IMG/VR virus record: IMGVR_UViG_3300034103_001292
Span: 1 to 25,621 of that record
DNA: 25,621 bases
Direction: 5' to 3' (one strand)
Source of the DNA: a virus
Below, piece after piece: positions 4,614 through 23,152 of this stretch. Positions within the stretch are counted from its first letter, which is position 1; every line of letters begins with the position of its first letter. Under the pieces are notes generated by a model. It worked only from the letters and a program-made list of their open reading frames with translations, was not told the origin of the DNA and did not search any database. A program made the translations under genes and the position numbers.

Positions 4614-5009
4614 ATGGATCGTGACGAACTGCTTGCCCACCACAAGGCACTATGCAACAAGGCGTTTTCCCTGATGCAGCGCAAGAACGCCGACTACGCA
4701 GGAAAGGGCGGTGATGAACCGTTTGCCAACTTCACCCGATGTGAAGCCATGGGCATCTGCCAAACCGAAGCGGGAATGCTTGTCCGCATGACAGACAAGA
4801 TGTCACGCTTGTCATCCTTTGTTGAATCGGGTACCCTTGAAGTCAAGGACGAGTCTGTAGAGGACACTTGTCTTGATCTGATCAACTACTCAGTCCTCTT
4901 CTATTCATACCTTCAGTCTAAGAAGGAGCAGAAGCATGACTCAGTCCCGTCGAATCCTCTTGTCGGTCATCCTCTTTACGACCCTCCTGCTCCCGTGCAG
5001 ACTTGCTAA
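4614..5009 (+). CDS. Nucleotide-modification-associated (DUF1599/Nmad1) or MazG-like protein
   Basis: 131 residues from ATG 4614, with AGGAAAGG at 4599-4606 as ribosome site; a TTG in frame six bases upstream is less likely. Visible features: RKNADY at about 23-28, FANF at 37-40, a helix with RMTDKMSRL near 59-67 and a second acidic helix EDTCLDLINYSVLFYSYL near 83-100. This KxADY plus DLINY pattern is that of DUF1599 proteins (nucleotide modification associated domain 1), all-helical and thought to relate to MazG/dUTPase-type nucleotide hydrolases. The likely substrate is a nucleotide. The last 25 residues are Pro-rich and are encoded in the overlap with the next gene. Its position after dUTPase supports a nucleotide role; the exact reaction is unknown. 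Confidence 0.72.
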   Translation: MDRDELLAHHKALCNKAFSLMQRKNADYAGKGGDEPFANFTRCEAMGICQTEAGMLVRMTDKMSRLSSFVESGTLEVKDESVEDTCLDLINYSVLFYSYLQSKKEQKHDSVPSNPLVGHPLYDPPAPVQTC

Positions 5010-5394
5010 TGCGGACATCGGAAGCAACATCGACAGACTGCTTCCTGCATTGGCACTTGTGGAGTCGCGCAACGATCCGAAGGCTGTTGGGGACGGAGGC
5101 GATGCGATTGGTATCTACCAAATCCATCGGGCCTACTGGCAGGATGCAGTTGACTTTGACAAGACCCTTGGTGGTTCCTATAAGGACTGCTTCGATCCTG
5201 AGTACGCCGAGCGAGTTGTCCGTGCCTACCTCAAGCGATACGCACCCGCCAATGCAACTGTTGAGCAACTTGCAAGAATTCACAACGGCGGGTGCAACAT
5301 CCTGAAGAAGCAGCACAGCAAGAAGGCAAAGGACAAGAAGGCGTGGGACAATACCACGAAGTATTGGAACAAGATCAAAAAGGAACTCGAATGA
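4936..5394 (+). CDS. Secreted lysozyme/transglycosylase-like endolysin
   Basis: 152 residues. Residues 1-26 form a signal peptide: RR, a hydrophobic run (LLSVILFTTLLLP) and an ANA cleavage site. The mature part begins DIGSNIDRLLPALALVESRNDP with probable catalytic Glu43, then GIYQI (59-63) and RIHNGG (114-119), the Glu...GxxQ...NGG arrangement of SLT/lysozyme-like muramidases. It should cut peptidoglycan after export, so it may not need a holin. AAGGAG at 4923-4928 seven bases before ATG supports the start, which lies 74 nt inside the previous gene. The Lys-rich C-terminus (KKQHSKKAKDKKAW) could bind anionic walls. Lysis enzymes are not usually embedded among nucleotide genes under an early-type promoter. 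Confidence 0.8.
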   Translation: MTQSRRILLSVILFTTLLLPCRLANADIGSNIDRLLPALALVESRNDPKAVGDGGDAIGIYQIHRAYWQDAVDFDKTLGGSYKDCFDPEYAERVVRAYLKRYAPANATVEQLARIHNGGCNILKKQHSKKAKDKKAWDNTTKYWNKIKKELE

Positions 5395-5819
5395 AAGTCG
5401 TATTGGTGACGGGAGGGTTCGATCCCCTCCACAGCGGACACATTGCATACTTCAAGGCGGCGCGAAAACTTGGCGACCGCCTTGTCGTAGGTTTGAACAC
5501 AGACGATTGGCTGACCCGAAAGAAGGGAAAGCCATTCATGCCCCTGCACGAACGAGCAACAATCGTATCCTCTCTTTGCGTGGTGGATGACATTGTTGCC
5601 TTCAATGATGATGACAACAGCGCGAAGGCTGCTATCATTACCGTTCGTCAGTTGTACCCTGATGCACACATCGTGTTTGCAAATGGGGGTGATCGGACGA
5701 AGGAGAACATCCCCGAGATGGACATCGATGATCCGAACCTTTCGTTCGTCTTCGGTGTCGGCGGGGAGGACAAGAAGAACTCCTCCAGTTGGATTCTTAA
5801 GAAGTGGCATGAATCATGA
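5391..5819 (+). CDS. HxGH nucleotidyltransferase (cytidylyltransferase-like)
   Basis: 142 residues. TGGFDPLHSGHIAYFKAA near the N-terminus carries the H14-x-x-H17 motif of the cytidylyltransferase superfamily (HldE C-domain, TagD, nicotinate/pantetheine enzymes). These join a phosphate-bearing substrate to a nucleotide and release pyrophosphate. LVVGLNTDDWLTRKKGKPFMPLHERATIV matches the HldE/RfaE-type adenylyltransferase layout; the C-terminus (GVGGEDKKNSSSWILKKW) contains a KNSSSW segment in place of the usual ISSTxIR. Substrate unknown: a sugar or polyol phosphate is likely. Start ATG overlaps the lysozyme stop, with AAGGA six bases upstream. It could serve the downstream modification genes or the distant glycan cluster. 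Confidence 0.82.
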   Translation: MKVVLVTGGFDPLHSGHIAYFKAARKLGDRLVVGLNTDDWLTRKKGKPFMPLHERATIVSSLCVVDDIVAFNDDDNSAKAAIITVRQLYPDAHIVFANGGDRTKENIPEMDIDDPNLSFVFGVGGEDKKNSSSWILKKWHES

Positions 5820-6895
5820 GTCTATTTGATGAGCCGAAGCAAGTTGAACTGGTGAGCAAGGTCAAGGTTGATGAGACGGTCAAGGAACTGTCATCGGCTT
5901 TCGACTATCCCTTCACGGGGACAAGCACCTTTGTTCCACCAACCATGCCCACTCCACCCGAGGGGTTTGGCATCGGTCTCATCGTAGGCCCATCGGGAAC
6001 GGGCAAGTCAACCATCCTCAAGCAGTTTGGTAGCGAGGAGACCATAACATGGGATCCTGAGTTGGCTGTCTGCTCTCACTTCAACAACGCCGTCGATGCC
6101 CGTGAGCGGCTGTCTGCGGTCGGGTTCAACTCCATTCCCGCGTGGATGCGCCCGTATCATGTCCTGTCCACGGGCGAGAAGTTCCGTGCAGACTTGGCTA
6201 GACGGCTGCGGGACGGAGCCGTGATCGATGAGTTCACCTCCGTGGTGGATAGGAATGTCGCCAAGTCATGTGCCAACTCTATTCGCCGCTATGTCGATCA
6301 GAAGAACATCAAGGGATTGGTGTTTGCTTCGTGCCATTATGACATCATCGAATGGCTTCGTCCTGATTGGGTGTTCGACACTAGCAGCGGCAAGTTGACC
6401 GCAAGGGGGTCTGAAAGGCGACCTGAGATTGTCTTGGAGATGCTTCCTTGCTCCACCGAAGCGTGGGCAATGTTCCGCAACCATCACTATCTCGACGGAA
6501 ACATCAATAAAGGTGCAAGATGTTGGATCGCCGTTTGGGACGGCACCCCTGTCGGATTCTCCGCTGCCCTTTCATTCCCCAACGGCAACCTGAAGAACGC
6601 ATGGCGTGGTCACAGGACGGTTGTGTTGCCCGACTATCAAGGGCTTGGCTTGGGTGTGCGTATCTCCGATGCCACGGCAGAGATCTTCGTCGGGCAGGGC
6701 TGTCGGTACTTCTCCAAGACCGCACACCCGCGCATGGGCGAGTACAGGAATCGGTCTCTCCTGTGGAAGCCTACGAGCAAGAACGAGCGCACACGCGAGG
6801 ACTACAGCAAGGGCAGAAGCACATATGAGGAGGGCTACAAGATGAAACATGCCCACCGTTTCTGCTACTCTCATGAATACATCGGCAAAAAATGA
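5816..6895 (+). CDS. ABC-ATPase / GNAT acetyltransferase fusion
   Basis: 359 residues with two domains. Residues about 50-205 form an ABC-type ATPase: Walker A GPSGTGKST (58-66), signature-like LSTGEK (117-122), Walker B AVIDEF (135-140) and the H-loop FASCH (His164). No membrane segment is present, so it is a soluble ABC protein and not a transporter subunit. Residues about 215-325 look like a GNAT acyltransferase: HRTVVLPDYQGLGLG with an acyl-CoA-binding QGLGLG (265-270), then SDATAEIFVGQG and a TAHPRMGEYRNRSLLWKPTSKN segment. The start overlaps the previous stop and the stop overlaps the next gene (ATGA both sides). The target is unknown: DNA, tRNA or protein. The adjacent Mom-like gene makes nucleic acid modification the leading guess. 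Confidence 0.85.
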   Translation: MSLFDEPKQVELVSKVKVDETVKELSSAFDYPFTGTSTFVPPTMPTPPEGFGIGLIVGPSGTGKSTILKQFGSEETITWDPELAVCSHFNNAVDARERLSAVGFNSIPAWMRPYHVLSTGEKFRADLARRLRDGAVIDEFTSVVDRNVAKSCANSIRRYVDQKNIKGLVFASCHYDIIEWLRPDWVFDTSSGKLTARGSERRPEIVLEMLPCSTEAWAMFRNHHYLDGNINKGARCWIAVWDGTPVGFSAALSFPNGNLKNAWRGHRTVVLPDYQGLGLGVRISDATAEIFVGQGCRYFSKTAHPRMGEYRNRSLLWKPTSKNERTREDYSKGRSTYEEGYKMKHAHRFCYSHEYIGKK

Positions 6896-7815
6896 AACGA
6901 TCTGCAATAGACATCATCGAACGGGCGAAGAACTACGACAAGGATCATTGTTGGCAGTATGACATCCGCGTAAAAAATCTTCCACAGGACATTGTGGAGA
7001 GTGGCATCGACCCCGAGCGCATCAAGACGCTGACCGTCAATGACTTTTACTTCAAGCCCCTGACCACCGAAAAAGAGCGGCGAGAGGCAACCAAGTTCAT
7101 CGAACGCCATGAGTGGCTAGGAAACCTATCACAGTTCACTACCCATTGGTTCGGTGTATACTATCACGATCCTAACCAAGGCATCGTGGGCAGAGACATC
7201 CTCGCGGGTGTGACACTCATGAACATGCCGAATGCATTCTCCAAGTTGCTTGGGGAAGAAACGCGAGACATGGAGCGGCTGATCAGCCGTGGTGCTTGTA
7301 TCTCATGGAGTCCAAAGAACCTCGCAAGCGCATTCCTCATGTGGTCGATCCAATGGATGGTCAAGAACACACAGTATCGTCTGTTCACCGCCTACTCCGA
7401 TCCTACCGCCAAGGAGATCGGCACCATCTATCAGGCTTGCAACTTCTACTACTTGGGACAGAATGCGGGCACGACCACTCGGTATATCAATCCCTACACG
7501 GGACGCATCGTCTCCGATAGGTTTTTTCGTGTCCGCAGCGCATACAAGAAGTATGCCAAGGAGTTGGGCATCGAATGGGATAAGAGTTGGAACAACGATC
7601 AGAAGATGCTGTGGGAGAATATTCCTGCTCATGTTGAGAAGGCTCTCCGAGCGCATAGCAAACTAAAGCAATCGCAAGCGCAGAGTATTCAATTCCCATC
7701 CAAGCACAAGTATGCATATGTACTTGGTGCAACCAAGGCTGAGACGAAGAAACTCCGCAGAGAGTTCGAAGCCCGTAACAAGGTACTACCGTACCCTAAA
7801 CAAAGAGGAGAGTGA
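6892..7815 (+). CDS. Mom-like GNAT-fold putative DNA modification protein
   Basis: 307 residues. The central part resembles phage Mom-type adenine modification proteins: HEWLGN (73-78), THWFGVYYH (84-92), LAGVTLM, DMERLISRGA (126-135), AYSDP (167-171) and GTIYQACNFYYLG (177-189). In phage Mu, Mom has a GNAT fold and converts adenine in DNA to a carbamoylmethyl form that resists restriction. The N-terminal 60 residues and the basic C-terminal 100 residues (KKLRREFEARNKVLPYPKQ) are extra and may bind DNA. The start overlaps the stop of the ABC-GNAT gene. Family assignment is by pattern reading only; a general GNAT protein without DNA activity is the alternative. Confidence 0.68.
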   Translation: MKRSAIDIIERAKNYDKDHCWQYDIRVKNLPQDIVESGIDPERIKTLTVNDFYFKPLTTEKERREATKFIERHEWLGNLSQFTTHWFGVYYHDPNQGIVGRDILAGVTLMNMPNAFSKLLGEETRDMERLISRGACISWSPKNLASAFLMWSIQWMVKNTQYRLFTAYSDPTAKEIGTIYQACNFYYLGQNAGTTTRYINPYTGRIVSDRFFRVRSAYKKYAKELGIEWDKSWNNDQKMLWENIPAHVEKALRAHSKLKQSQAQSIQFPSKHKYAYVLGATKAETKKLRREFEARNKVLPYPKQRGE

Positions 7816-7816
7816 C

Positions 7817-8074
7817 ATGAAGACTATTGGCAAATGGGTGGCGGTAAAGACCATCGGCTTGGGCAAGGAAAAGAAGAGCGAGTCGGGCATCATCTACACG
7901 GAAAAGATCACCAACCCGAACATTTGGAGCGAGGTGATCAGCGTGGGCGAGAAGGTCACCGAAGACATTCAGGTAGGCGACAAGGTGCTGTGGGACATCA
8001 CCAAGGGCAGAGGCAATGCCTATGGCGGGTTTGACATTGTTCATCAGGACAACATCCTCGCCGTGGAGCGGTGA
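7817..8074 (+). CDS. GroES-like co-chaperonin
   Basis: 85 residues from ATG 7817, with AGAGGAG (7804-7810) six bases before; in-frame ATGs further upstream lie inside the previous gene. The pattern matches Cpn10: a short KWVAVKTI strand, a mobile loop KEKKSESGIIYTEK with the hydrophobic GII(Y) tip that contacts GroEL, WSEVISVGEKV, the VGDKVLWD segment and the terminal strand DNILAVER. It would work with the host GroEL, as T4 gp31 does for capsid protein folding, though gp31 is longer (111 residues). The size and sequence are closer to bacterial GroES than to gp31. Its stop overlaps a GTG at 8071. Confidence 0.85.
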   Translation: MKTIGKWVAVKTIGLGKEKKSESGIIYTEKITNPNIWSEVISVGEKVTEDIQVGDKVLWDITKGRGNAYGGFDIVHQDNILAVER

Positions 8075-8076
8075 GG

Positions 8077-8802
8077 ATGGCATACAAGGACAAAGAAAAA
8101 CAAAAGGCGACAGTCAAGGCTTGGCGCGAACGCAATCGTGAACGAGTTCGTGCAGAATGTAATGCTTGGTATGAACGCAACCGCGAACGACGATTGCTAA
8201 CAGTAAAGGCTTGGGGAGAACGAAATCGTGAACGAAAAGCAGCAACAGATAAGGCTTGGGTAGAACGCAACCGCGAACGACGATTGCTAACAATAAAGGC
8301 TTGGAGAGAACGAAATCGTGAAAGAACAGCAGCGACAGATAAGGCTTGGGTAGAACGAAATCGTGAACATGTAATCGAAAGAAACAGAAGACGAAGATGC
8401 AAAAAGAAAAATGCGTCTGTTCGTTTGACTGTCAGCGAACAGAAGAAACTGTTCTTGATGGAGCAAACTCGCCTAGAACTCCAAAAGGAAACAGGAAGAG
8501 AATATCACATTGATCACATTCTTCCAATTGCTCATGGTGGCATTCACCACCCAATCAATCTGAGAATACTAGATGGAAAAGAGAACGAGTCAAAACAAGC
8601 CAAACTCCTTCCTGAAGCGATTGATCTTGCATATGAACACTTCATGCTCTATCATGACAGAGTTAGTCCCGAACGAGCATGGGAGTTCGTCCATCAACTC
8701 GCAGAGGGCTTGGGTATTTCAGTTGACGAGATTCGGATCGATGATCAGCAGATCAAACTCTCCCTTCCGACCAAGTCAACCCTAGAGGATTTGATGGAAT
8801 GA
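8077..8802 (+). CDS. HNH endonuclease with tandem-repeat basic N-terminus (probable homing enzyme)
   Basis: 241 residues from ATG 8077; a GTG at 8071 overlapping the previous stop is an alternative start. Residues 14-108 consist of six copies of a 15-residue unit built around AWxERNRER, highly basic and helical, probably lying along DNA. The C-terminal half has the HNH motif: HIDH (144-147), then Asn161 in INLR and Asn170 in KENESK. Free-standing HNH genes of this kind in T4-like phages act as homing endonucleases. The gene is more A-rich than its neighbours (26 of 60 bases G/C in 8281-8340, against 39 of 60 in 9421-9480 of gene 43), which supports separate acquisition. Its stop overlaps the polymerase start (ATGA). 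Confidence 0.85.
   Translation: MAYKDKEKQKATVKAWRERNRERVRAECNAWYERNRERRLLTVKAWGERNRERKAATDKAWVERNRERRLLTIKAWRERNRERTAATDKAWVERNREHVIERNRRRRCKKKNASVRLTVSEQKKLFLMEQTRLELQKETGREYHIDHILPIAHGGIHHPINLRILDGKENESKQAKLLPEAIDLAYEHFMLYHDRVSPERAWEFVHQLAEGLGISVDEIRIDDQQIKLSLPTKSTLEDLME
8191..8370 (+). repeat. Two 90-bp direct repeats in the HNH gene
   Basis: The segments 8191-8280 and 8281-8370 are adjacent near-identical copies; both begin CGATTGCTAACA and end with GTAGAACG..CG.GAACGA-like sequence. Each encodes two 15-residue units. Divergent further units flank them at about 8116-8190. The arrangement points to growth by slippage or unequal recombination. Confidence 0.85.
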
Positions 8803-11339
8803 CTCCCTTCTACACCAATGTCGTTACAAAGGGCGGCAGACTCCTGCACCGTGGCTATGACAAGCACGGCAAGCGTGTGCATGAGTCGCTGACCTTTCGC
8901 CCCACCCTGTTCGTCCCGACCAAGAAGGTGAAGCCAACATCGTGGCACACCATCGACGGCAACAGGGTGGATCCCGTTGATTTTGAAAACATGTTCGAAG
9001 CGCGGGAGTTCATCAAGAAGTATCAGGATGTCGAAGGCTTCACCGTCTACGGCGACATCGAATCGCAGTACCAGTTCATTGCCGAGAACTACGGCAGCGA
9101 GGGCGAACTGGAGTACGACCCCACTCTGATCCGAGTGGCGTACATCGACATTGAGGTGGAGAGCGAGAACGGGTTTGCCACTCCCGAGGAGGCAACCGAG
9201 AAGGTAAACGCGATCACCATCGCACAGGGCAACGAAATCCATGCTTTCGGCTTGGGCGACTTCACGGCTCCCGAAGGCGTGACTGCACATCGCTATGTCG
9301 ATGAGGCACAGTTGCTCCATGGCTTCTTGGACACATGGGAATCCTTGGACTGCGACATCGTGACGGGGTGGAATGTCAACATGTTTGACATGCCCTATCT
9401 GTGCCGCCGCATCGAACGGGTGCTTGGTGGCAAGTCGGCAAAGCGACTGTCCCCGTGGGGTGAGTATCGCTCCCGCGAGGTGTATGTCATGGATCGCAAG
9501 AACATGGTGTATGACTTCTCAGGGATCACCGTGCTTGACTACATGGACTTGTACAAGAAGTTCACCTTCGTGACCCCCGAGTCCTACAAGTTGCAGCACA
9601 TCGCTTCCGTGGAGTTGGGCGAGAGCAAGATGGACTACTCCGATGTCGGCACCCTGACCGAGTTGTACCGCAAGGACTTCCAACGGTTCATGGAGTACAA
9701 CATCAAGGACACCCTGCTTGTCTGCAAGTTGGAAGACAAGTTGCGCCTGATCGAACTTGCACAGGCTCTTGCCTACAGCGCGAGAGGAAACTTCGGGGAT
9801 GTCTTCTCACAGGTACGCATGTGGGACAGCATCATCTACAACCATCTTCGCACCAAGAAGGTGGCGATCCCGCCAAAGACGGGCAACGACAAGGACAACC
9901 AGTTCGAAGGTGCATATGTCAAGCCCCCGATCATCGGTGAACATGAGTGGGTGGTCTCCTTCGACCTTGACTCGCTTTACCCCCACCTGATCATGCAGTA
10001 CAACTTGTCACCCGAGACGATTCTCTCCGACAGGATCCCCGCCGTCTCCGTGGACTCCCTGATCTCAGGGCAAGACCCCTCTCTAGAGGGATTCCTGTCC
10101 ATGTCGAAGGAGAAGGACATCTGCGTGGCTGCGAACGGCACCATGTACCGCAGGGACATCCGTGGCTTCCTCCCTGAACTCATGGACACCATGTACGCCC
10201 AACGCAAGGAGTACAAGCGGCGAATGCTTGAGGCGAAGGGGTGGATCAAGACAGAGGGCACCAAGGCTGACCCCGCCACGGTCGCCACCAAGAAGAAGGA
10301 AGTGTCGAAGTATCACAACTTCCAGTTGGTGCGTAAGGTGCAGTTGAACAGCGCGTTCGGTGCCTTGGGCAACCAATACTGCCGCTATTACAATCTCAGC
10401 ATGGCAGAGGCGATCACGGTATCGGGGCAGTTGTCGATTCGTTGGGCAGAGGACAATCTGAACCGCTTCCTCAACAAGGCTTGCGGCACGGAGGGCGAGG
10501 ACTATGTCATCGCCGTTGACACCGACTCCGTCTATCTGCGGCTCGGGCCTCTTGTCAAGACGGCGTTCCCGAAGAAGGACAAGAAGAAGACCACCGAGAT
10601 GGTGGACAAGTTCTGCAACGATGTGATCTCCCCGAAGATCAACAAGTGGTACGAGCAGTTGGCGCAGCGAATGAATGCATATGCCAATCGCATGTCGATG
10701 AAGCGCGAAGCCATCGCATCAAAGGGAGTATTCGTCGCCAAGAAGCGGTACATGCTTGCCGTGCAGTTGGGAGAGGACAATGTCTACATGGACGATCCCG
10801 ACCTGAAGATCATGGGCATCGAAACCGCCCGTTCGTCCACACCGCAGATCGTCCGTACACGGCTCAAGGAGGCGATCAAGTTGATCCTGACCGCTGATGA
10901 AGGTGCATTGCACTCTTTCGTTGAGAGGTTCCACGACGAGTTTGCGGGGCTTCCTGTCTACGACATCGCGTTCCCCCGTGGCTGCAACGGCTTGGATGAC
11001 TATGCCGATGCCGCAAGCATCTACAAGAAGGGCACACCCATGCATGTCAAGGGTTCGTTGGTCTATAACCATTGGATCAAGAAGATGGGGCTGTCCAAGA
11101 AGTATACCCTGATCCGCAACGGCGAGAAGATCAAGTATGTCGAACTGAAGGTGCCCAATCCCGTGCGAGAGAAAGTGTTGTCTTTCCCCGCCACCTTCCC
11201 CGAGGAGTTTGGTATCGATGCGTTCATCGACAAGGAGACGCAGTTTGAGAAGGCTTTCATCGAACCGCTCTCCAACATCCTCAACTGCATCGGGTGGAAG
11301 GTGAAGGAAGAAGGGTCGTTGGAAGGTCTGTTTGCCTGA
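8799..11339 (+). CDS. 43: Family B DNA polymerase with 3'-5' exonuclease (T4 gp43-like)
   Basis: 846 residues (T4 gp43 is 898). Exonuclease motifs: AYIDIEVES with Asp117/Glu119 (Exo I), WNVNMFDMPYL with Asp197 (Exo II) and YNIKDTLLV with Asp304 (Exo III). Polymerase motifs: SFDLDSLYPHLIMQYNLSPET (A, Asp389), KVQLNSAFGALGNQY (B, about 513-527) and AVDTDSVYL (C, Asp574 and Asp576). All catalytic residues are present, so it should be an active proofreading replicase. The C-terminus GSLEGLFA resembles the clamp-binding tail of gp43 proteins. No split or intron is seen, which is relevant given the HNH gene directly upstream and overlapping its start codon. Confidence 0.97.
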   Translation: MTPFYTNVVTKGGRLLHRGYDKHGKRVHESLTFRPTLFVPTKKVKPTSWHTIDGNRVDPVDFENMFEAREFIKKYQDVEGFTVYGDIESQYQFIAENYGSEGELEYDPTLIRVAYIDIEVESENGFATPEEATEKVNAITIAQGNEIHAFGLGDFTAPEGVTAHRYVDEAQLLHGFLDTWESLDCDIVTGWNVNMFDMPYLCRRIERVLGGKSAKRLSPWGEYRSREVYVMDRKNMVYDFSGITVLDYMDLYKKFTFVTPESYKLQHIASVELGESKMDYSDVGTLTELYRKDFQRFMEYNIKDTLLVCKLEDKLRLIELAQALAYSARGNFGDVFSQVRMWDSIIYNHLRTKKVAIPPKTGNDKDNQFEGAYVKPPIIGEHEWVVSFDLDSLYPHLIMQYNLSPETILSDRIPAVSVDSLISGQDPSLEGFLSMSKEKDICVAANGTMYRRDIRGFLPELMDTMYAQRKEYKRRMLEAKGWIKTEGTKADPATVATKKKEVSKYHNFQLVRKVQLNSAFGALGNQYCRYYNLSMAEAITVSGQLSIRWAEDNLNRFLNKACGTEGEDYVIAVDTDSVYLRLGPLVKTAFPKKDKKKTTEMVDKFCNDVISPKINKWYEQLAQRMNAYANRMSMKREAIASKGVFVAKKRYMLAVQLGEDNVYMDDPDLKIMGIETARSSTPQIVRTRLKEAIKLILTADEGALHSFVERFHDEFAGLPVYDIAFPRGCNGLDDYADAASIYKKGTPMHVKGSLVYNHWIKKMGLSKKYTLIRNGEKIKYVELKVPNPVREKVLSFPATFPEEFGIDAFIDKETQFEKAFIEPLSNILNCIGWKVKEEGSLEGLFA
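10057..10090. repeat. Two adjacent perfect inverted repeats in the polymerase gene
   Basis: CCCTGA-TC-TCAGGG (10057-10070) and CCCTCT-CT-AGAGGG (10077-10090), each a 6-bp perfect stem with a 2-base centre, separated by six bases. They fall in the codons for SLISGQDPSLEG between polymerase motifs A and B. Possible mRNA structure or nuclease site; chance is not excluded. Confidence 0.5.
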
Positions 11340-13199: not shown

Positions 13200-13710
13200 T
13201 CCCAAGCCAATCCTGTTCGACGGCTTTGACAGAGCGTTCATGGGTGTGCTTCGTCGCCACGGGCAGACCGTGCCGATTGCAGTCTATGACTATGGTCGTT
13301 GCATGCAGATCCTCATGGATCGTGACGGCATGGAAGAAGACGAGGCTGTTGAATGGCTTGAGGTGAACACCCTAGGTGCGTACTTCGGAGAGACAACTCC
13401 TGCAATGGTCTTTCGCTGCTCACTAGAAGAACTTGGTGAAGAGTGCGGTATTGATGTCGGTCATGATGACCGTGACTACGGCGACGAGCATCAGTCTGAG
13501 GAAGACGATACCGAGGAGATGACCGAAGAAGAGCAGCAGTTGGTTGACGAGGCGATTCAGAACTTCGCCCTCAACTTCATCAAGTATGTCCGCGAGGTCG
13601 ATGAGTCTCTGTACAGCCGTGCAAAGCAGTACGCCGCCGACTATTCGGGCAATGCCGTAGTTGAGTTCATCGATGATGGAGAAGGAGACGAGAATGAGAA
13701 TGGTGATTAA
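13189..13710 (+). CDS. Acidic conserved-type phage protein of unknown function
   Basis: 173 residues from GTG 13189. The start is chosen because GAGGAGGT (13176-13183) sits five bases before it; an upstream ATG at 13135 lies deep inside uvsX. The N-terminal half (ILFDGFDRAFMGVLRRHGQ, VYDYGRCMQILMDRDGMEEDEAVEWLEVNTLGAYFGETTP) is of a type often seen in phage genomes without assigned function. The middle (HDDRDYGDEHQSEEDDTEEMTEEEQQ) is extremely acidic and probably disordered, followed by a helical segment and another acidic tail. It overlaps uvsX by 11 bases and the next gene by 17. A DNA mimic or a partner of a basic protein is conceivable, but nothing shows it. Confidence 0.85.
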   Translation: MQSDPKPILFDGFDRAFMGVLRRHGQTVPIAVYDYGRCMQILMDRDGMEEDEAVEWLEVNTLGAYFGETTPAMVFRCSLEELGEECGIDVGHDDRDYGDEHQSEEDDTEEMTEEEQQLVDEAIQNFALNFIKYVREVDESLYSRAKQYAADYSGNAVVEFIDDGEGDENENGD

Positions 13711-14422
13711 GTTCCCCACGCGGGGGCGACCGCAGAAGTTTGTGTCCGTATTAGACAAGTACATCAACTTCCTTTCGGGGATGCATGAGGTACATTTCGT
13801 TGTGTCATTTGATTATGACGATCCGAGCATGAACAATGACAACATGTGGTCTCTGTTCAATCGCCTAAACTCACAACTGGAAGGTCGAATTCATCCTGTC
13901 TGTGGCAAGTCTACGGGCAAGATCTCAGCCGTTAATGCTGACTTGGATGTCGTTCGTCGCCTGAATCCCGATGTCATTCTGCTTGCGTCCGATGACATGA
14001 TCCCCGTTCATGGCGGCTACGACGATGTGATTGCACGGGCTATGGCGAAGTTCTTCCCCGATACGGATGGGGTTCTTTGGTTCAACGATGGCTTCTCAGG
14101 AGGCAACAAGTTGATCACCCTTTCGATCTTGGGTCGCAAGTATTTCGAACGCTTTGGTTACCTGTACTACCCAGGCTATAAGTCTGTGTTCTGTGACAAC
14201 GAGTTCACGGATGTTGCAAAGATGCTTGGCAAGGTTGTGTTCATCGACCATGTCATCATTCAGCATCAATGGGTCGGGGCTACGACACCTGATGCCCTGC
14301 ATGCCCGTAACGAGTCTCCTGAGATGTATGCCCATGATCAGCCGCTCTACCATGAGCGTCTTGCAAAGAACTTTGATTTGAACCCTGAGGAGATCAAGAA
14401 TGTCTTGGCGACCAATGCATAA
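13694..14422 (+). CDS. Glycosyltransferase-like protein (phage GT-A type)
   Basis: 242 residues from ATG 13694, with GAAGGAG at 13681-13687 six bases before. It begins IKFPTRGRPQKFVSVLDKYI, the opening common in phage-encoded glycosyltransferases, followed by HFVVSFDYDDPS and a metal-binding-like LLASDDM (96-102). A later WFNDGFSGGNKLITLSILGRKYFERFGYLYYPGY resembles the acceptor half of family 2 enzymes, and a C-terminal VIIQHQWVG is present. It would transfer a sugar from a nucleotide sugar to an unknown acceptor. First gene of the glycan cluster; the stop overlaps the next start by 8 bases. Confidence 0.75.
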   Translation: MRMVIKFPTRGRPQKFVSVLDKYINFLSGMHEVHFVVSFDYDDPSMNNDNMWSLFNRLNSQLEGRIHPVCGKSTGKISAVNADLDVVRRLNPDVILLASDDMIPVHGGYDDVIARAMAKFFPDTDGVLWFNDGFSGGNKLITLSILGRKYFERFGYLYYPGYKSVFCDNEFTDVAKMLGKVVFIDHVIIQHQWVGATTPDALHARNESPEMYAHDQPLYHERLAKNFDLNPEEIKNVLATNA

Positions 14423-14996
14423 ACTCTCCATCCTCATTCCAAGCCTTGAGGAACGGAAGCCCAAACTTGAACAACTGAAAGCCGAACTGGCGAGTCAGAT
14501 TGGCAAGCGTAATGTTGAGGTGCTATCTCTGTCCGACAACAGGCAGATGACCATCGGTCAGAAGCGTAACATGCTGCTCACCCAATCCACGGGCGAGTAT
14601 GTTTCTTTTGTGGATGATGATGACATGGTCAGCCCCGACTACATCGAAAAGGTTCTGAATGCCTTGACCAAGAACCCCGACTGCTCGTCGCTCACAGGCG
14701 AGATCGTCTTCTCAGACGGCTATAGCCGCCCCTTCATTCACTCTTTGCGGTATACCCAATGGATCGATGATCATGAGGGCAAGGTCTACTATCGACCACC
14801 AAACCACCTGAACGCCGTCCGCAGGGCGATTGCCGTACAGGTCGGGTTCCCGCCATGGAACAGCGGAGAAGACCGCTCATTCAGTATGGGCATTCGACAC
14901 TTCCTCAAGAAGGAAGAGTGGATCGAAGGTGTGATCTACAACTACAAGTGCAGCAAGACTTTTGAGGAAACCCACAACAATCAGGTGACACGATGA
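14415..14996 (+). CDS. Family 2 glycosyltransferase
   Basis: 193 residues from ATG 14415, chosen over an ATG at 14400 because the family begins at the first beta strand (KLSILIPSL). DNRQMTIGQKRNMLLTQSTGEYVSFVDDDD places the metal/nucleotide-sugar DDDD at 67-70. A later PPNHLNAVRRAIAVQVGFPPWNSGEDRSF is the acceptor-side motif with the likely catalytic Glu-Asp. Length is short but contains the complete GT-A fold. It is clearly related to the next gene product (MTIGxKRxML, DDDD), so the two look like a tandem duplication. Confidence 0.85.
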   Translation: MHKLSILIPSLEERKPKLEQLKAELASQIGKRNVEVLSLSDNRQMTIGQKRNMLLTQSTGEYVSFVDDDDMVSPDYIEKVLNALTKNPDCSSLTGEIVFSDGYSRPFIHSLRYTQWIDDHEGKVYYRPPNHLNAVRRAIAVQVGFPPWNSGEDRSFSMGIRHFLKKEEWIEGVIYNYKCSKTFEETHNNQVTR

Positions 14997-15640
14997 GCAA
15001 CATTCTACTAACAATCGCAATTCCATCTATTCCATCTCGTATTCGTATGAATCTTGAGCCGATGTTCTCTCGTCTCCAAAGCCAAATTGGTTCTCGGAAA
15101 GATGTAGAGATCGTTTCAATTCTCGACAACAAGAGCATGACAATTGGCAAGAAGAGACACATGCTGCACCGATTGGCACAGGGAAAGTACTGTGCAATCA
15201 TTGACGATGACGATGATGTGACTCCAAACTATGTGGACGAAGTAACAAAAGCGATCCAAGCCAATGATGGAGTAGATGTCATTCATTACGACCAAGAAGC
15301 CATTATCGATGGTACATCGTTTCTAATCAGCACCGATGTGAAGGCAAAGATGTTTCCGTTTGACCAACTTCCTAGAACTCCAAAGGACGCAAATGGCAAC
15401 TACATTCCATGCGTAAGACCGCCTTGGCATTGGTGTGCTTGGAGAACAGAGTTTGCGAAGAAATTCCCATTCGGTGACTCCTTTTCAGGAGAAGACGCAA
15501 TCTTTGTAGAGAAGGCGATCCCTAGTGTCAAGAGTTCACACAAGATTGACAAAATTCTTCACATCTATCGTTGGTCATCGAAGGAGACATCTGCTCCTCT
15601 TATTCCCAACAATCCAAACAAGCCCGTAGAGGTAGCATGA
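14993..15640 (+). CDS. Family 2 glycosyltransferase (paralogue of the preceding gene)
   Basis: 215 residues. VEIVSILDNKSMTIGKKRHMLHRLAQGKYCAIIDDDDD (Asp71-75) parallels the preceding protein; PCVRPPWHWCAWRTEFAKKFPFGDSFSGEDAIFVEKA carries the acceptor-side GED. AGGTGA (14983-14988) precedes the ATG, which overlaps the previous stop (ATGA). The DNA is more AT-rich than the replication genes (23 of 60 bases G/C in 15001-15060) and more AT-rich than the adjacent paralogue, so the copies may have different origins. Confidence 0.85.
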   Translation: MSNILLTIAIPSIPSRIRMNLEPMFSRLQSQIGSRKDVEIVSILDNKSMTIGKKRHMLHRLAQGKYCAIIDDDDDVTPNYVDEVTKAIQANDGVDVIHYDQEAIIDGTSFLISTDVKAKMFPFDQLPRTPKDANGNYIPCVRPPWHWCAWRTEFAKKFPFGDSFSGEDAIFVEKAIPSVKSSHKIDKILHIYRWSSKETSAPLIPNNPNKPVEVA

Positions 15641-16398
15641 ACTGCTCCTTGTTTGTCATCTTCCATTCCAGTCTCCACGAAGATCAGTATCGTGGCAAAG
15701 AGAATGCATTCATTTATGCAAAGGTCGGGGAACACCCTATTCGCGTTTCTTCACCCAAGATCTTGGAAGGTGTGATCGAACATACGAAAATGCCAGTAGT
15801 TGATAGACGGGGGAAACATTGGGCAGAATCAGAATTTCTGATCTCGTTGTACAAAAGCCTAAAGGAACGCCCAAGTTACATTGGTGACAGCAAGTGGGTA
15901 GGCTTCATTCAATACGATCACACGATTAGGGCTAGAACTGGCATCGATCTATTAGACTTTCTACAAGAGAACTTGGGTCAAATTGACAACTCGGCAGCAA
16001 TCTGCTTTGCCCCAATAAACCTAAAGATGGAAGTTTCGCAGAATCACATCGCAATGGATCCATCAGATCCACAGAAGTTGCGTGGAGATCCAATCTGCTA
16101 TTTGCAGATGATCTCCGACTACAATGAGTTCTACGGCACCAATCACACTTACAAAGACTTTTTGCAGAACAACGAGACAATTGCACTCTGCTCATCATTT
16201 GTAATCACCACAGAGAACTTCATGAAGATGATGGAATTCTGTGTTTGGGCTGCGGAGAAGAACGACCTAAATCAATACGACATTGCTAGAAAGCACCGTA
16301 TTGCGGGCGGTTTAATGGAACGGTACTATGGATGTTGGCTAGCCCTATCAGCCGTGAAACTTACCAAATTTGCATTGGATGAACTGCCGCGAATGTGA
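15637..16398 (+). CDS. Unrecognised protein of the glycan cluster, possibly glycosyltransferase-like
   Basis: 253 residues from ATG 15637, overlapping the preceding stop, with GAGG at 15629-15632. No firm domain. It starts SLFVIFHSSLHEDQY, has WAESEFLISLYKSL and WVGFIQYDHTI, reminiscent of DUF4422-type exopolysaccharide glycosyltransferases, and a C-terminal CVWAAEKNDLNQYDIARKHRIAGGLMERYYGCWLA segment like an acceptor-recognition helix pair. There is no signal peptide or membrane helix. The surrounding genes suggest a role in glycan assembly; the enzyme class is a guess. Confidence 0.75.
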   Translation: MNCSLFVIFHSSLHEDQYRGKENAFIYAKVGEHPIRVSSPKILEGVIEHTKMPVVDRRGKHWAESEFLISLYKSLKERPSYIGDSKWVGFIQYDHTIRARTGIDLLDFLQENLGQIDNSAAICFAPINLKMEVSQNHIAMDPSDPQKLRGDPICYLQMISDYNEFYGTNHTYKDFLQNNETIALCSSFVITTENFMKMMEFCVWAAEKNDLNQYDIARKHRIAGGLMERYYGCWLALSAVKLTKFALDELPRM

Positions 16399-16418
16399 TA
16401 TATCAAGGAGACTTTGAC

Positions 16419-17207
16419 ATGAACACACCGACATACAGCATTGCGATATCGACATTTGTATACAGGCTCGACAAGTATTTCAAGCCTTTGATGAACTCTA
16501 TTTGTGCGATGCGTCCTGATGTTGACAAGGTTGTATTTGTCAATGGACAGCACAAGAAAGGATTCGATCAGGAGTATCGCAAGGAGATTATGCGATTCTG
16601 CTCTCTGTGTCCTCGCACATATCTCATCATGTCCCCAATCGTTCGTGGTTGTTCTTTCATGTGGAATAGTTGTTTCAACTTCACGAACACAGATTACATC
16701 CTCAATCTGAACGATGATGTGATTCTTGCTAGCGGGTTCTTTGATGACTATGAGGGAATGCTGCGCGAATCAAAGAACGAATCATTCCGAATCAACTACA
16801 GTTTTTCTCACTTCAGCGTCAATCGTCAGGATCTCTTCGATGTGGGATACTTCGATGAACGGCTCTTGGGGTTTGGTGAGGAAGATGGTGATTGGCTTTG
16901 GAGGTGGGAAGTTAAAAAGCAGCGTTCACTTCCGTGCTATATGACGAACAAAATTCATAACTGTATTGACATGGCACCAACAAACGCCGAGAACATGATT
17001 AAGCACAACGAGGGTGGTGGGAAATACTCTGCTTTCAATCGAAACCTCATACTCAACCACATGTACGAGTTTCCACAGACTCCCGATCCTGCTCGACCTG
17101 TTCATGTGGGTCTCTATGGTCGCCCCGCACAGAGGCGTGTCGGTGTGGAGACTCTTTCATACTATCCCGCAGAGAAGTGGTACAGAGACAACATCAACTC
17201 AATCTGA
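16419..17207 (+). CDS. Family 2 glycosyltransferase
   Basis: 262 residues from ATG 16419, with AAGGAG (16405-16410) eight bases before; an in-frame GTG at 16395 overlapping the previous stop is less likely. YSIAISTFVYRLDKYFKPLMNSI is the first strand/helix; YILNLNDDVIL contains the metal-binding NDD (98-100). FDERLLGFGEEDGDWLWRWE (135-154) is the classic FDExxxGxxEDxD acceptor motif of bacterial GT2 enzymes. It should be an active sugar transferase with unknown donor and acceptor. The gene uses ATA isoleucine codons, for example near 16443. Confidence 0.87.
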   Translation: MNTPTYSIAISTFVYRLDKYFKPLMNSICAMRPDVDKVVFVNGQHKKGFDQEYRKEIMRFCSLCPRTYLIMSPIVRGCSFMWNSCFNFTNTDYILNLNDDVILASGFFDDYEGMLRESKNESFRINYSFSHFSVNRQDLFDVGYFDERLLGFGEEDGDWLWRWEVKKQRSLPCYMTNKIHNCIDMAPTNAENMIKHNEGGGKYSAFNRNLILNHMYEFPQTPDPARPVHVGLYGRPAQRRVGVETLSYYPAEKWYRDNINSI

Positions 17208-17218
17208 TTGGATAACTC

Positions 17219-17848
17219 ATGCTTCATATGGACTTCAAAAAACTGTTGGCAAAGTATGGCAAGACAAAGAGAGACGGTATTATTCATGTTGGTGCCCATA
17301 TTGGTGAAGAAATAGGCTTTTACAAAGAACTTGGCTTTGCGAAGATACTTCTGTTCGAACCGCTGACCGAGCCGTTTGGAAAAATTCCCGTGTGTGAAGG
17401 CGTTTACAAAGTCAACTGCGCTTTGGGTTCTACCAACGAAACTCTTGTGATGAATGTTGCCGACAACTTTGAATCGTCTTCGATTCTAAAACCAAGTCAT
17501 CATTTGGTAGCACATCCCGATGTAAAGTTTGTTGGTGAGGAGTCTGTTTCTGTAAAAAGATTGGACGATTGGTTTGAAACCAATGAGTTTGCTCTTTCAA
17601 TGAATGATTTTTCCTGCATGGTATTAGACGCGCAGGGGTACGAGGGAAAGATTGTTCTAGGAGCGACTGAAACGCTGAAGCGCATGGATGTTGTGTATTC
17701 TGAGGTAAGCGTACAGGATCTCTACCATGAGAACACACACATGAATTACCTAGACTACCAACTCAATAGGTATAACCTGAACAGAAAAGAGACTTGGATT
17801 TCCTATTCGGGTTCGGGCGAGGCGATTTACATTAAGGATAACACATGA
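17219..17848 (+). CDS. FkbM-family SAM-dependent methyltransferase
   Basis: 209 residues. IIHVGAHIGEEIGFYKELG (about 21-39) is the SAM-binding glycine motif I, LLFEPL follows as motif II, and VLDAQGYEGKIVLGATETL is the FkbM-type LDxxGxE segment. The family O-methylates sugars or polyketides; in glycan clusters it usually caps a sugar hydroxyl. Start ATG 17219 is used; ATG 17228 is possible, and neither has a strong ribosome site. Several ATA codons occur. Its stop overlaps the next start (ATGA). Confidence 0.85.
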   Translation: MLHMDFKKLLAKYGKTKRDGIIHVGAHIGEEIGFYKELGFAKILLFEPLTEPFGKIPVCEGVYKVNCALGSTNETLVMNVADNFESSSILKPSHHLVAHPDVKFVGEESVSVKRLDDWFETNEFALSMNDFSCMVLDAQGYEGKIVLGATETLKRMDVVYSEVSVQDLYHENTHMNYLDYQLNRYNLNRKETWISYSGSGEAIYIKDNT

Positions 17849-18747
17849 AGATCGACAAGATTGCATTCCCCTGCTCTGAATTGTTCAGCCCATTTTGGAA
17901 CATCCAATCTAGGGTGTGGAAAACCAAGTTGGGCATCCATCCCGTCTGCTTCCTGTATGGAGATAAGCGGAAGTGTGGTATGTCGGAAGAATACGGCGAG
18001 GTAGTAGAACTTAAGCCCGACCCGACAGTTCCTTCTGTTCTTCAACTGCAATTCAGCAGATTTTGGTATCCTCACCTTGAACCTGAGACTACATGGCTCA
18101 TCGGTGACATCGATCTTATCCCACTACAGAAAGAGTATTTCCTTGCAGGCATGGAATCGATCCCCGATGATTCATACTGCCACTTGAATTACTCCATCAT
18201 TGGTAGGGAGATGGGACTAAATCCCAAAACATATTTCGAAAAAGGTGCATTAAAGATGGGCGGTTACGACCTCCCAGGGCATTATCATTGCGCCAAAGGC
18301 AAAGTTCTGAAGCAACTATTCTTCGCTGACTATGAGGATTACTCAACATTCCTGAAGAAAGAAATCATAGACTCAGGAAAATACAAGGACATCCGCGAAG
18401 GCGATCCCCCGCACATGCGCGAACAGAGGGGAGACCATTGGATGGCTGAAGAACACTACACATCGGAAAAGGTATGGGATTACTTCCGACCCAAAAACTT
18501 CCAAGGAATGTTTGTGCGAGAGTATTTGGCGCAATTCCAACGGCTTGAGGCGAAGTATCAACATGCGTATAACCCAAACTACTATCCCCCTGTTTGGGAT
18601 GGAGTGCGGTTTAGACATGATGCCGACCGTAGATGCCCCAATAGACTTCAGGATGGGATGTTGGTTGAGATACATTGCCCACTCCCGTATGAACCACACG
18701 AAAAGGCGTTGCTGCAACTACTCACCGAAGCAAAGATGTATCCATGA
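17845..18747 (+). CDS. Unrecognised glycan-cluster protein, possible GT-A glycosyltransferase
   Basis: 300 residues. TTWLIGDIDLIPLQKEYFLAGM around residues 82-103 contains a DxD (Asp88, Asp90) in the position typical of GT-A enzymes, after a strand-rich N-terminus (IAFPCSEL, HPVCFLYGD). The rest has conserved-looking blocks (HYHCAKGKVLKQLF, REQRGDHWMAEEHYTS, HCPLPYEPHEKALLQLL) that I cannot assign. It is soluble and carries no signal peptide. It is coupled to both neighbours by ATGA overlaps. A nucleotide-sugar-dependent transferase is the best guess. Confidence 0.7.
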   Translation: MKIDKIAFPCSELFSPFWNIQSRVWKTKLGIHPVCFLYGDKRKCGMSEEYGEVVELKPDPTVPSVLQLQFSRFWYPHLEPETTWLIGDIDLIPLQKEYFLAGMESIPDDSYCHLNYSIIGREMGLNPKTYFEKGALKMGGYDLPGHYHCAKGKVLKQLFFADYEDYSTFLKKEIIDSGKYKDIREGDPPHMREQRGDHWMAEEHYTSEKVWDYFRPKNFQGMFVREYLAQFQRLEAKYQHAYNPNYYPPVWDGVRFRHDADRRCPNRLQDGMLVEIHCPLPYEPHEKALLQLLTEAKMYP

Positions 18748-20144
18748 ACATTTGTATTTCTGGTAGTTCGGGCGTTGGAAAAACCACCATCGCACATCTC
18801 ATCCGATCTGTATTGGGAGATAGCGATACTGTGCTTGTTAGTGGTGATGATCTGCATAAGTGGGAAAGAAGTGATCCAGTTTGGAACAACTTGACTCACT
18901 TGAACCCCGAGGCGAATGATTTGGAGATGGGATACGATCATATCGTTTCCCTGAAGCAGCAGAGACCCGTCAGTCGAAGGATCTATAATCACGATACAGG
19001 GAAGTTTGACCCTGCGATCACAATAGAACCCAAAAAGTACATTGTCTATGAGGGTCTTCATGCTCTTTATCATGATCCCACTATGTCATTGGCAGACATC
19101 AAGATATTCGTTGATACTGATCATGCACTCAAGACCGAGTGGAAAGTCAAACGCGACACCAAGAAGAGGGGATATACCGAGTCGCAAGTCTTAGACACAA
19201 TGCGAAGACGCAAGCGCGATGAAGAGATCTATATTACCCCACAAAAGAACCGCGCAGACATCATCGTAAAGTTCACCAAGTCAAAAGACGGGGACATCTC
19301 TTTAGAGTATGTCTCTGTCACGGGAACTGGCGAATCGCTAATGTCTAAAGTGAAGGGCTTCTACGAAAGCCTGACTGAGTTCATGGATATCTGTAAATGG
19401 CTGTCTCTTGAGCCATCTCTGACACAAGGCAGGGGCGGGAATGTATCCGTAAAGTCCAATAGCGGGTTGATCATCAAAGCATCAGGATCGAACATGGCAG
19501 ACATTAATCTCCATCATGGATTCTGCCTATGCAACATCGATGGTGAGTCAATACCTCGCTTCGAAAGAGAGGATGAATACAACCAGTTCATCAACCAATC
19601 AAAGATCGCGGGTACGCAAAGACCCTCTATGGAAACAGGGTTTCATGCATCCATTTCCGATCAAGTTGTTGTACATACTCACCCAATCCATTTGAATGTC
19701 ATTCTTTGTAGCAAAGAGGCACGGGCTATCGTTCGAGGTCTATTTCAGGATCTCTCATATGAGTTCGTAGAATACACCACCCCAGGTGCGAGACTCACGA
19801 ATAGGATCAGAGATCTTCGTGGAGTGATCTTCTTAGAGAACCACGGACTAATCGTGAGTGCGAAAACAGCAGAGAGTGCGATGGTCATGACGGAAGACAT
19901 CAACCGTCGATGCAAGAAATGGTTAGGCAATCATGTCGAATCGTTTGTTGATATTGAGGACGCTATCGCACATGCCCCGCTTTTCCCCGATGCCGCTGTT
20001 CTTCCCGATGAGATGGGAGAGACGAACAACTACATACTTCGGTTGATGATGGGTGCCTGTCTGAACCCCAAGTTTTTGGATAGTTCTGAAGTGCAGCAGT
20101 TAAACAACATGCAGTCAGAGAAATACAGGAAGGCTTTAGTATGA
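18744..20144 (+). CDS. Uridine-kinase-like P-loop kinase fused to class II aldolase
   Basis: 466 residues with two domains. Residues 1 to about 190 are a uridine kinase/phosphoribulokinase-type kinase: GSSGVGKTT (7-15), SGDDLHKW, IVYEGLHALYH and an Arg-rich lid (RRRKRDEE). Residues about 205-440 are class II aldolase/adducin: QGRGGNVSVKSNSGLIIKASG (about 228-248), Zn-binding HTHPIH with His311 and His313, and ENHGL with His367. Members of the second family cleave or epimerise sugar phosphates through a metal enediolate. Fusion of the two suggests that a small polyol or sugar is phosphorylated and then joined or cleaved to give a precursor. A nucleotidyltransferase gene follows with an ATGA overlap. 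The exact substrate is unknown. Confidence 0.87.
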   Translation: MNICISGSSGVGKTTIAHLIRSVLGDSDTVLVSGDDLHKWERSDPVWNNLTHLNPEANDLEMGYDHIVSLKQQRPVSRRIYNHDTGKFDPAITIEPKKYIVYEGLHALYHDPTMSLADIKIFVDTDHALKTEWKVKRDTKKRGYTESQVLDTMRRRKRDEEIYITPQKNRADIIVKFTKSKDGDISLEYVSVTGTGESLMSKVKGFYESLTEFMDICKWLSLEPSLTQGRGGNVSVKSNSGLIIKASGSNMADINLHHGFCLCNIDGESIPRFEREDEYNQFINQSKIAGTQRPSMETGFHASISDQVVVHTHPIHLNVILCSKEARAIVRGLFQDLSYEFVEYTTPGARLTNRIRDLRGVIFLENHGLIVSAKTAESAMVMTEDINRRCKKWLGNHVESFVDIEDAIAHAPLFPDAAVLPDEMGETNNYILRLMMGACLNPKFLDSSEVQQLNNMQSEKYRKALV

Positions 20145-20998: not shown

Positions 20999-21474
20999 TC
21001 TTCATTTCGCACCGTGGAAATCTTGACGGAGTCAATACACAAAGGGAAAACGAACCCGCTTACATAGAGGAATGCCTAAGCAAGGGATTTCATTGTGAGA
21101 TTGATCTTCGCATGAAAGATGGTGTCCCTCATTTGGGACACGACACACCTGACTACCCAGTTTCTGCTGAGTGGATACGAAAGCGTTGGTATTATCTTTG
21201 GATTCATGTCAAAGAGTATCAAGCCCTGATTTGGTTGATGAAAAACTGTCCAGGGACAAACTACTTCTGCCATGAATCGGATCGCTACACCCTCATCAGC
21301 AACGGTCTGATTTGGTCGCATGATTTGGAAAATCAAATGAACGACAAGTGCATCATTCCTTTACTCTCTCGGGAATCTGTGATGTCGTACAATCAAACAG
21401 GTTTTGTTGGAGTTTGTTCCGATTACATCTACGATTGTGTAGAGAAGTTCGGAAAGCAAAATACTAGGGCTTGA
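20995..21474 (+). CDS. GDPD/PI-PLC-like phosphodiesterase
   Basis: 159 residues from ATG 20995, with AAAGGAG at 20977-20983; upstream in-frame ATGs lie inside the previous gene. ISHRGNLDG (His6, Arg7), the CEIDLR acidic pair (Glu35, Asp37) and HLGHD (His49) are the active-site pattern of glycerophosphodiester phosphodiesterases; LWIHVKEYQAL and NYFCHESDRYTL follow. It is shorter than full GDPDs (about 250), but the end (CSDYIYD) looks natural. Small forms like this are common in capsule clusters. It may hydrolyse a phosphodiester in a glycan precursor or recycle one. The rmlB-side promoter overlaps its stop. Confidence 0.75.
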   Translation: MIFISHRGNLDGVNTQRENEPAYIEECLSKGFHCEIDLRMKDGVPHLGHDTPDYPVSAEWIRKRWYYLWIHVKEYQALIWLMKNCPGTNYFCHESDRYTLISNGLIWSHDLENQMNDKCIIPLLSRESVMSYNQTGFVGVCSDYIYDCVEKFGKQNTRA

Positions 21475-21499: not shown

Positions 21500-21523
21500 C
21501 AGACAAATCGAAAGGTCTACACT

Positions 21524-22564: not shown

Positions 22565-22585
22565 TAGGGAACGGAACACTTCTAT

Positions 22586-23149: not shown

Positions 23150-23152
23150 TAC

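What the first reader, a model, noticed from the sequence alone, without database searches (positions are those of the whole stretch)
5391..7815. Candidate nucleic-acid modification module: nucleotidyltransferase, ABC-ATPase/GNAT fusion, Mom-like protein
Two GNAT-fold enzymes are coupled head to tail by an ATGA overlap. One is fused to a soluble ABC ATPase with intact Walker A, signature, Walker B and H-loop; the other carries the AYSDP...GTIYQACNFYYLG pattern of Mom-type adenine modification proteins. A HxGH nucleotidyltransferase, an Nmad1-like protein and a dUTPase lie directly upstream in the same transcription unit. In T4 the base-modification genes also lie near gene 43. Seen: motifs and coupling. 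Known: Mu Mom modifies adenine and blocks restriction. Inference: these genes jointly make an ATP-driven DNA (or tRNA) modification, with the ABC domain acting as a DNA-scanning or gating motor.
Basis: partly seen in the sequence, partly recalled or inferred. Interest (0 to 1): 0.72.

Follow-up and report, generated by a model that had tools for sequence, protein, structure and literature searches.

The report
Mom-type enzyme beside ABC-ATPase acetyltransferase fusion
A T4-like phage carries, side by side, two enzymes of known families that probably decorate its own DNA to escape bacterial restriction; the pairing is unusual, but relatives carry either enzyme without the other, so they look like two independent modules rather than one machine.

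Summary
ORF 6892-7815 is a Mom-family protein: Pfam Mom above its cut-off, Mu Mom crystal 8bv8 as best structural match (Z 17.0, next 12.3), and the serine whose mutation inactivates Mu Mom is kept. ORF 5816-6895 is a compact soluble ABC ATPase fused to a GNAT domain (phrog_11143), a published but untested predicted DNA base-acylating family.

The "one joint ATP-driven pathway" reading is not supported. Sister T4-like phages carry Mom alone or ABC-GNAT alone in the same slot before gene 43. In most Mom-bearing sisters the slot also holds N6/N4 DNA methyltransferases. The nucleotidyltransferase is absent in one close relative, and the overlaps are ordinary for this operon. Best reading: a swappable DNA-modification/anti-restriction slot holding two independent modules.

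New details: this Mom belongs to a well-supported long subfamily in which the H-Y-S motif of Mu (His48-Tyr49-Ser50) is E-W-L. The window's ABC-GNAT belongs to viral lineages without the ParB-like partner found beside 52 of 60 cellular/prophage homologues. Which base or group is modified, and whether ABC-GNAT acts on DNA at all, is not shown.

The parts
5816..6895 (+). ABC-ATPase/GNAT fusion, 359 aa; ABC domain about residues 7-201 (nt 5834-6418), GNAT domain about 205-358 (nt 6428-6889)
   Evidence: phrog_11143 2.7e-111; AF2 pLDDT 92.5; structural matches to ABC ATPases (Z about 13) and GNATs (Z 14.5)
5987..6010 (+). Walker A of the ABC domain (GPSGTGKS, residues 58-65)
   Evidence: G58, S60, G61, G63, K64 identical in 88/88
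6164..6178 (+). ABC signature LSTGE (residues 117-121)
   Evidence: S118 and G120 identical in 88/88
6215..6253 (+). Walker B and D-loop (GAVIDEFTSVVDR, residues 134-146)
   Evidence: D138, E139, T141, S142, V143, R146 identical in 88/88
6335..6337 (+). H-loop histidine 174
   Evidence: 88/88
6482..6493 (+). HHYL motif of the GNAT domain (residues 223-226), resembling the HHYS motif of ordinary Mom proteins
   Evidence: H224 and Y225 88/88; weak profile alignment to Mom, E 0.0026, probability 11%
6614..6655 (+). GNAT acyl-CoA motif A region (R267 to G280, contains QGLGLG)
   Evidence: Q275 and G276 88/88, G278 and G280 85/88
6892..7815 (+). Mom-family GNAT enzyme, 307 aa, long EWLG subfamily
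   Evidence: PF25680 1.2e-14; phrog_1384 2e-17; 8bv8 (Mu Mom) Z 17.0 over 192 residues
7108..7122 (+). HEWLG motif (residues 73-77); E74-W75-L76 stand where Mu Mom has H48-Y49-S50
   Evidence: alignments A2 and A5; one clade on the tree, SH-aLRT 99
7327..7329 (+). Ser146, equivalent of the serine mutated in the inactive Mu Mom crystal (S124A in entry numbering, S114 in AAF01131.2)
   Evidence: 69/69, 20/20 with Mu; mutated position read
7399..7431 (+). Asp170 to Tyr180, equivalents of Mu D139 and Y149 (AYSDP...GTIY motif)
   Evidence: invariant in 20/20 including Mu and in A5
5391..5819 (+). HxGH nucleotidyltransferase (cytidylyltransferase-like, HldE-C-like); neighbour, probably not part of a common pathway
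   Evidence: PF01467 2.8e-14, phrog_7878 6.6e-31; absent in relative L008
4614..5009 (+). Nmad1-like gene (DUF1599), left border of the variable slot
   Evidence: PF07659 8.2e-5 below cut-off; phrog_1485 5.4e-18; present in most T4-like relatives whatever the slot content
4936..5394 (+). lysozyme-like (SLT/destabilase) gene between Nmad1 and the slot
   Evidence: PF05497 1.8e-9, PF01464 7.5e-7
7817..8074 (+). GroES-like (Cpn10) gene downstream of the pair
   Evidence: PF00166 1.6e-7
8799..11339 (+). family B DNA polymerase (gene 43), right border of the slot
   Evidence: PF00136 2.6e-25

Best explanation
The stretch is the filled variable slot of a T4-like replication cluster, between Nmad1/lysozyme and gene 43, where these phages collect DNA-modifying enzymes. 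Two independent modules sit in tandem here. (1) A Mom-family acyltransferase probably modifies adenine in phage DNA with a small group from an acyl-CoA-type donor, blocking restriction (family and fold shown; activity, base and group inferred from Mu Mom). (2) An ABC-GNAT enzyme probably dimerises head to tail on ATP binding, clamps its substrate, and lets its two GNAT sites transfer an acyl group, most likely to a DNA base (domains and intact ATPase and CoA motifs shown; dimer, clamp and DNA target inferred). They protect the same genome in parallel, not as steps of one reaction; the nucleotidyltransferase is a bystander.
For: Mom: PF25680 above cut-off; profile A5 finds only 8bv8 in the PDB, E 3e-25; 8bv8 best by structure, Z 17.0 against 12.3 next; inactivation serine kept 69/69. 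ABC-GNAT: all ATPase motifs and the CoA motif conserved, pLDDT 92.5, family predicted to acyl-modify a DNA base (PMC7824862). Independence: L106 and L050 have ABC-GNAT without Mom, L010 and L020 Mom without ABC-GNAT, in the same slot; among long contigs each often lacks the other. The slot holds N6_N4_Mtase genes in sisters, one overlapping the start of Mom; of 30 distinct T4-like loci 19 have Mom plus methyltransferase, 4 Mom plus ABC-GNAT. Mom was exchanged on its own: in L007 and L008 the other shared genes are 92-100% identical in DNA but Mom 77-78%. Both genes under purifying selection.
Against: No biochemical evidence for any member of the ABC-GNAT family was found. ABC-GNAT neighbours are not enriched in methyltransferase-motif genes (1.8% within 2 kb against 2.7% farther), so guilt by association for a DNA target is weak outside the T4-like slot. 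The EWLG change in the window's Mom lies in a motif conserved in Mu, so activity may differ. Loose linkage of Mom and ABC-GNAT recurs (L317 0.35 kb, L117 1.1 kb, L147 1.7 kb), which leaves room for cooperation.
Confidence: 0.6

Rival explanations
1. One reading: nucleotidyltransferase, ABC-GNAT and Mom jointly make one ATP-driven hypermodification, with the ABC domain acting as scanning or gating motor.
For: ATGA overlap of the pair kept in 5 related contigs (gap -4 in each); looser Mom/ABC-GNAT linkage recurs in L317, L117, L147.
Against: Either gene occurs alone in the same slot of sister phages; in long contigs each often lacks the other; nucleotidyltransferase absent in L008; Mom swapped independently of ABC-GNAT in L007 and L008.
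Confidence: 0.12
2. ABC-GNAT acts on a protein (for example host RNA polymerase or a ribosomal protein), while Mom alone modifies DNA.
For: Its GNAT half matches protein and small-molecule acetyltransferases such as RimI about as well as others; phage GNATs acting on RNA polymerase are known (Rac, cited in PMC7824862); no methyltransferase enrichment nearby.
Against: A related lineage is coupled to a ParB-like gene in 52 of 60 loci and often lies just upstream of terminase (23 of 52 with enough downstream sequence), a DNA-handling context; published prediction is DNA acylation; HHYL motif resembles Mom's HHYS.
Confidence: 0.2
3. ABC-GNAT acetylates tRNA, analogous to TmcA/NAT10, in which an ATPase-helicase is fused to a GNAT.
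For: ATPase plus GNAT architecture is shared by analogy; one ABC-GNAT phage (Axumite) has a gene annotated tRNA-methyltransferase next to it.
Against: Different ATPase fold; terminase and ParB contexts point to DNA.
Confidence: 0.06

Closest known systems
Phage Mu Mom (Pfam PF25680; PDB 8bv8, named methylcarbamoylase mom)
   Same: GNAT fold (Z 17.0 over 192 residues); serine of the inactive S124A mutant, plus R101, D139 and Y149 (AAF01131.2 numbering), conserved.
   Different: 21% identity; about 300 aa with an N-terminal extension; H48-Y49-S50 replaced by E-W-L; lies in a T4-like replication cluster rather than behind a Com gene.
ABC-ATPase/GNAT predicted DNA acyl-modification family (Burroughs/Iyer/Aravind; Tenacibaculum phage pT24; phrog_11143)
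   Same: Same domain order and motifs; the pT24 locus is 40% identical.
   Different: In the window it is followed directly by Mom; no ParB-like partner; in pT24 the two domains are annotated as separate ORFs.
ParB-coupled ABC-GNAT systems in prophages and bacterial genomes (Planctomycetota, Nonomuraea, Streptococcus and Gordonia phages)
   Same: Homologous ABC-GNAT (about 33-44% identity).
   Different: ParB-like gene directly upstream in 52 of 60 cellular loci against 0 of 41 viral-contig loci; often just before terminase.
TmcA / NAT10 RNA cytidine acetyltransferases
   Same: ATPase and GNAT in one protein, modifying a nucleobase (analogy only, from general knowledge).
   Different: Helicase-type ATPase, RNA substrate, no shown sequence homology to ABC-GNAT.

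Membership tests
Mom family (broad, PF25680) for 6892-7815 | Match to the family profile above the curated cut-off | tested here: met
   54.9 bits against cut-off 27.1; profile A5 finds 8bv8 at 3e-25
Mom family (broad, PF25680) for 6892-7815 | Fold of Mu Mom | tested here: met
   8bv8_A Z 17.0, 192 aligned, rmsd 3.5; next best GNAT 12.3
Mom family (broad, PF25680) for 6892-7815 | Serine whose mutation inactivates Mu Mom (S124A in 8bv8) | tested here: met
   Ser146 in the window, 69/69 homologues
Mom family (broad, PF25680) for 6892-7815 | Adenine modification in DNA that blocks restriction | not testable with these tools
   needs LC-MS and restriction assays
Mu-type (HYS) Mom subfamily for 6892-7815 | H-Y-S motif at Mu H48-Y49-S50 | tested here: not met
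   E-W-L in the window and its subfamily; HYS and EWLG split once on the tree, SH-aLRT 99. A one-residue alignment shift that keeps H73 over H48 is not excluded
ABC-GNAT family (phrog_11143) for 5816-6895 | Soluble ABC domain with complete ATPase motifs fused to GNAT with CoA motif | tested here: met
ABC-GNAT family (phrog_11143) for 5816-6895 | Acyl modification of a DNA base | not testable with these tools
   published as a prediction only (PMC7824862)
ParB-coupled ABC-GNAT systems | ParB-like gene directly upstream | tested here: not met
   none in the window; 0 of 41 viral-contig relatives; no ParB_N match over cut-off in 16 long contigs, 12 of which carry ABC-GNAT
Nmad1 (PF07659) for 4614-5009 | Profile match above curated cut-off | tested here: inconclusive
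   23.3 bits against cut-off 25; phrog_1485 5.4e-18 without known function

The most novel reading that the evidence does not exclude
The EWLG subfamily of Mom makes a modification different from Mu's (for example plain acylation with Glu74 as base instead of the Mu chemistry), and where it sits behind ABC-GNAT the two GNAT enzymes act in sequence on the same base to give a two-step hypermodification not yet described.
Probability: 0.1. Interest if true: 0.75.

Novelty: new variant of a known kind. Interest (0 to 1): 0.4.

Why it matters
It places two little-studied DNA-modifying enzyme families in one exchangeable slot of T4-like phages, defines a Mom subfamily with a changed motif at Mu's H48-Y49-S50, and shows two ABC-GNAT contexts (with and without a ParB-like partner). 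That gives natural single-enzyme, double-enzyme and methyltransferase versions of one slot, which makes the untested ABC-GNAT prediction directly testable.

Tried and rejected
COG2401 was searched in papers with no hit; the 2013 and 2020 papers on these families are not in the library. Methyltransferase enrichment near ABC-GNAT was tested and not found. A PADLOC match of the ABC domain to mad3 covers only 52 residues around signature and Walker B and was taken as a generic ABC match. T4-type hydroxymethylation: no thymidylate synthase-like gene in the 168-kb relative, so a T4-like hmC route is not supported there. Profile comparison of the two GNAT domains is weak (E 0.0026 and 0.021); common descent beyond the GNAT fold is not claimed. 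The phrog_11143 whole-genome search rings in all control genomes because of the ABC part, so only strong full-length matches were used. Residue roles in Mu Mom other than the S124A mutant rest on memory and were not used as tests.

Full report
What is there. The window is a whole 25.6-kb IMG/VR virus record, a linear fragment, with the T4-like order clamp, clamp loader, regA, dUTPase... gene 43, UvsX/RecA-like, gp41-like helicase. The finding's three genes are real, on the + strand, with ATGA overlaps. Other neighbours overlap in the same way (lysozyme to nucleotidyltransferase, HNH to gene 43), so the overlap of the pair is not evidence of joint function.

Mom. ORF 6892-7815 matches Pfam Mom at 1.2e-14 and PHROG 'Mom-like DNA modification protein' at 2e-17. 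A profile of 69 relatives finds one PDB sequence, Mu Mom 8bv8, at 3e-25. The AF2 model (pLDDT 94.7) matches 8bv8 best, Z 17.0 over 192 residues, clearly above the next GNAT at 12.3. 8bv8 is titled an inactive mutant; its mutated serine (S124 in entry numbering, S114 in AAF01131.2; read) aligns with Ser146, which is identical in 69 of 69. R101, D139 and Y149 of Mu are also kept. One motif is not: the H-Y-S of Mu and ordinary phage Mom proteins is E-W-L here. The EWLG proteins (about 300 aa, against about 200) form one side of one branch of the tree with SH-aLRT 99. A one-residue shift that would keep His73 over His48 cannot be excluded by sequence alone.

ABC-GNAT. ORF 5816-6895 matches phrog_11143 over its full length (2.7e-111). 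The model (pLDDT 92.5) has an ABC domain at residues 7-201 and a GNAT domain at 205-358. Walker A, signature, Walker B with catalytic Glu, D-loop and H-loop are invariant or nearly so, and the GNAT motif A (QGLGLG) is kept. Only about 53 residues separate Walker A from the signature, so the helical arm that transporter ABC domains use is short (sequence reading; interpretation inferred). The family has been predicted to perform an uncharacterised acyl modification of a DNA base (PMC7824862); no experimental test was found.

Context. Loci from viral contigs, phages and genomes were collected. In T4-like relatives the slot between Nmad1 and gene 43 is variable. Of 30 distinct loci, 19 carry Mom plus DNA methyltransferase genes, 4 Mom plus ABC-GNAT, 2 Mom only, 2 ABC-GNAT without Mom, and 3 nothing in the slot, with Mom lying after the RecA-like gene instead. 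The loci were selected for having Mom or ABC-GNAT, so these are not frequencies in nature. Several methyltransferases match N6_N4_Mtase, and in L006 one stands where ABC-GNAT stands here, overlapping the start of Mom. The adjacent pair was seen only in the window's close relatives (L005, L007, L008, L045, L058). Looser linkage was seen in L317, L117, L147, L130 and L220. Among 16 long contigs, Mom and ABC-GNAT co-occur in 5.

Independent exchange. Against L007 and L008 the other shared genes are 92-100% identical in DNA but Mom only 77-78%. Against L005, the lysozyme and nucleotidyltransferase genes (about 87-88%) and Cpn10 (69%) differ while ABC-GNAT is 99%. L008 lacks the nucleotidyltransferase. 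dN/dS of Mom and ABC-GNAT is 0.02-0.14. ABC-GNAT genes 80-83% identical occur without Mom in otherwise unrelated phages (L046-L049). This is the pattern of separate, swappable cassettes.

ParB-like partner. In cellular and prophage loci a ParB-like gene lies directly upstream in 52 of 60; in viral-contig loci 0 of 41. Pfam ParB_N confirms three of four tested representatives, one above its cut-off, and PHROGs names others ParB-like. The label needs 6 changes on the tree against about 28 in shuffles. In 23 of 52 cellular loci a terminase-like gene follows within 2.5 kb (identity of representatives). The window's ABC-GNAT therefore belongs to lineages without a ParB-like partner.

Mechanism. Shown: families, folds, conserved catalytic and ATPase residues, selection, modular exchange. 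Inferred: Mom modifies adenine in phage DNA; ABC-GNAT forms an ATP-dependent dimer on its substrate and acylates, most likely, DNA; both serve protection from restriction. The weakest step is the DNA target of ABC-GNAT.

Verdict. Observation confirmed; joint-pathway interpretation not supported; DNA-modification reading plausible and in line with published prediction. New variant of a known kind, interest 0.4.

Noticed in passing
L073:3917-5646; L077:3899-5502: In a Pseudomonas phage and a Porphyromonas phage an ABC-GNAT gene overlaps a downstream formyltransferase gene (PF00551, 3.2e-17 for L073), a possible hint to the chemistry of the family.
   Followed up: partly
L004:7857-9029; L072:3875-4944; L074:3998-5058; L069:3947-5343: The ABC and GNAT halves lie on separate consecutive ORFs in pT24, Streptococcus, Oenococcus and Thomasclavelia phages (also split in contig G013), so the fusion is not obligatory.
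   Followed up: partly
8077-8802: HNH-like gene with a repetitive basic N-terminus directly before gene 43; present in L007 but absent in L005, L008 and L045, so it looks mobile and may help local gene exchange.
   Followed up: partly
L024:8783-9598 and L025:17723-18538: A second, divergent Mom-like ORF (E 3.4e-6) downstream of gene 43 in phages that also carry the EWLG Mom.
   Followed up: no
13661-24076: Long run of sugar and glycan genes (GT2 glycosyltransferases, FkbM methyltransferase, nucleotidyltransferase, two NAD epimerases) between UvsX-like and gp41-like genes; the 5391 nucleotidyltransferase may belong functionally to this set.
   Followed up: partly
18744-20144: Fusion of a phosphoribulokinase/uridine kinase-like domain with a class II aldolase domain.
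   Followed up: no
36-731: Trypsin-like protease gene at the edge of the replication cluster, conserved in relatives.
   Followed up: no
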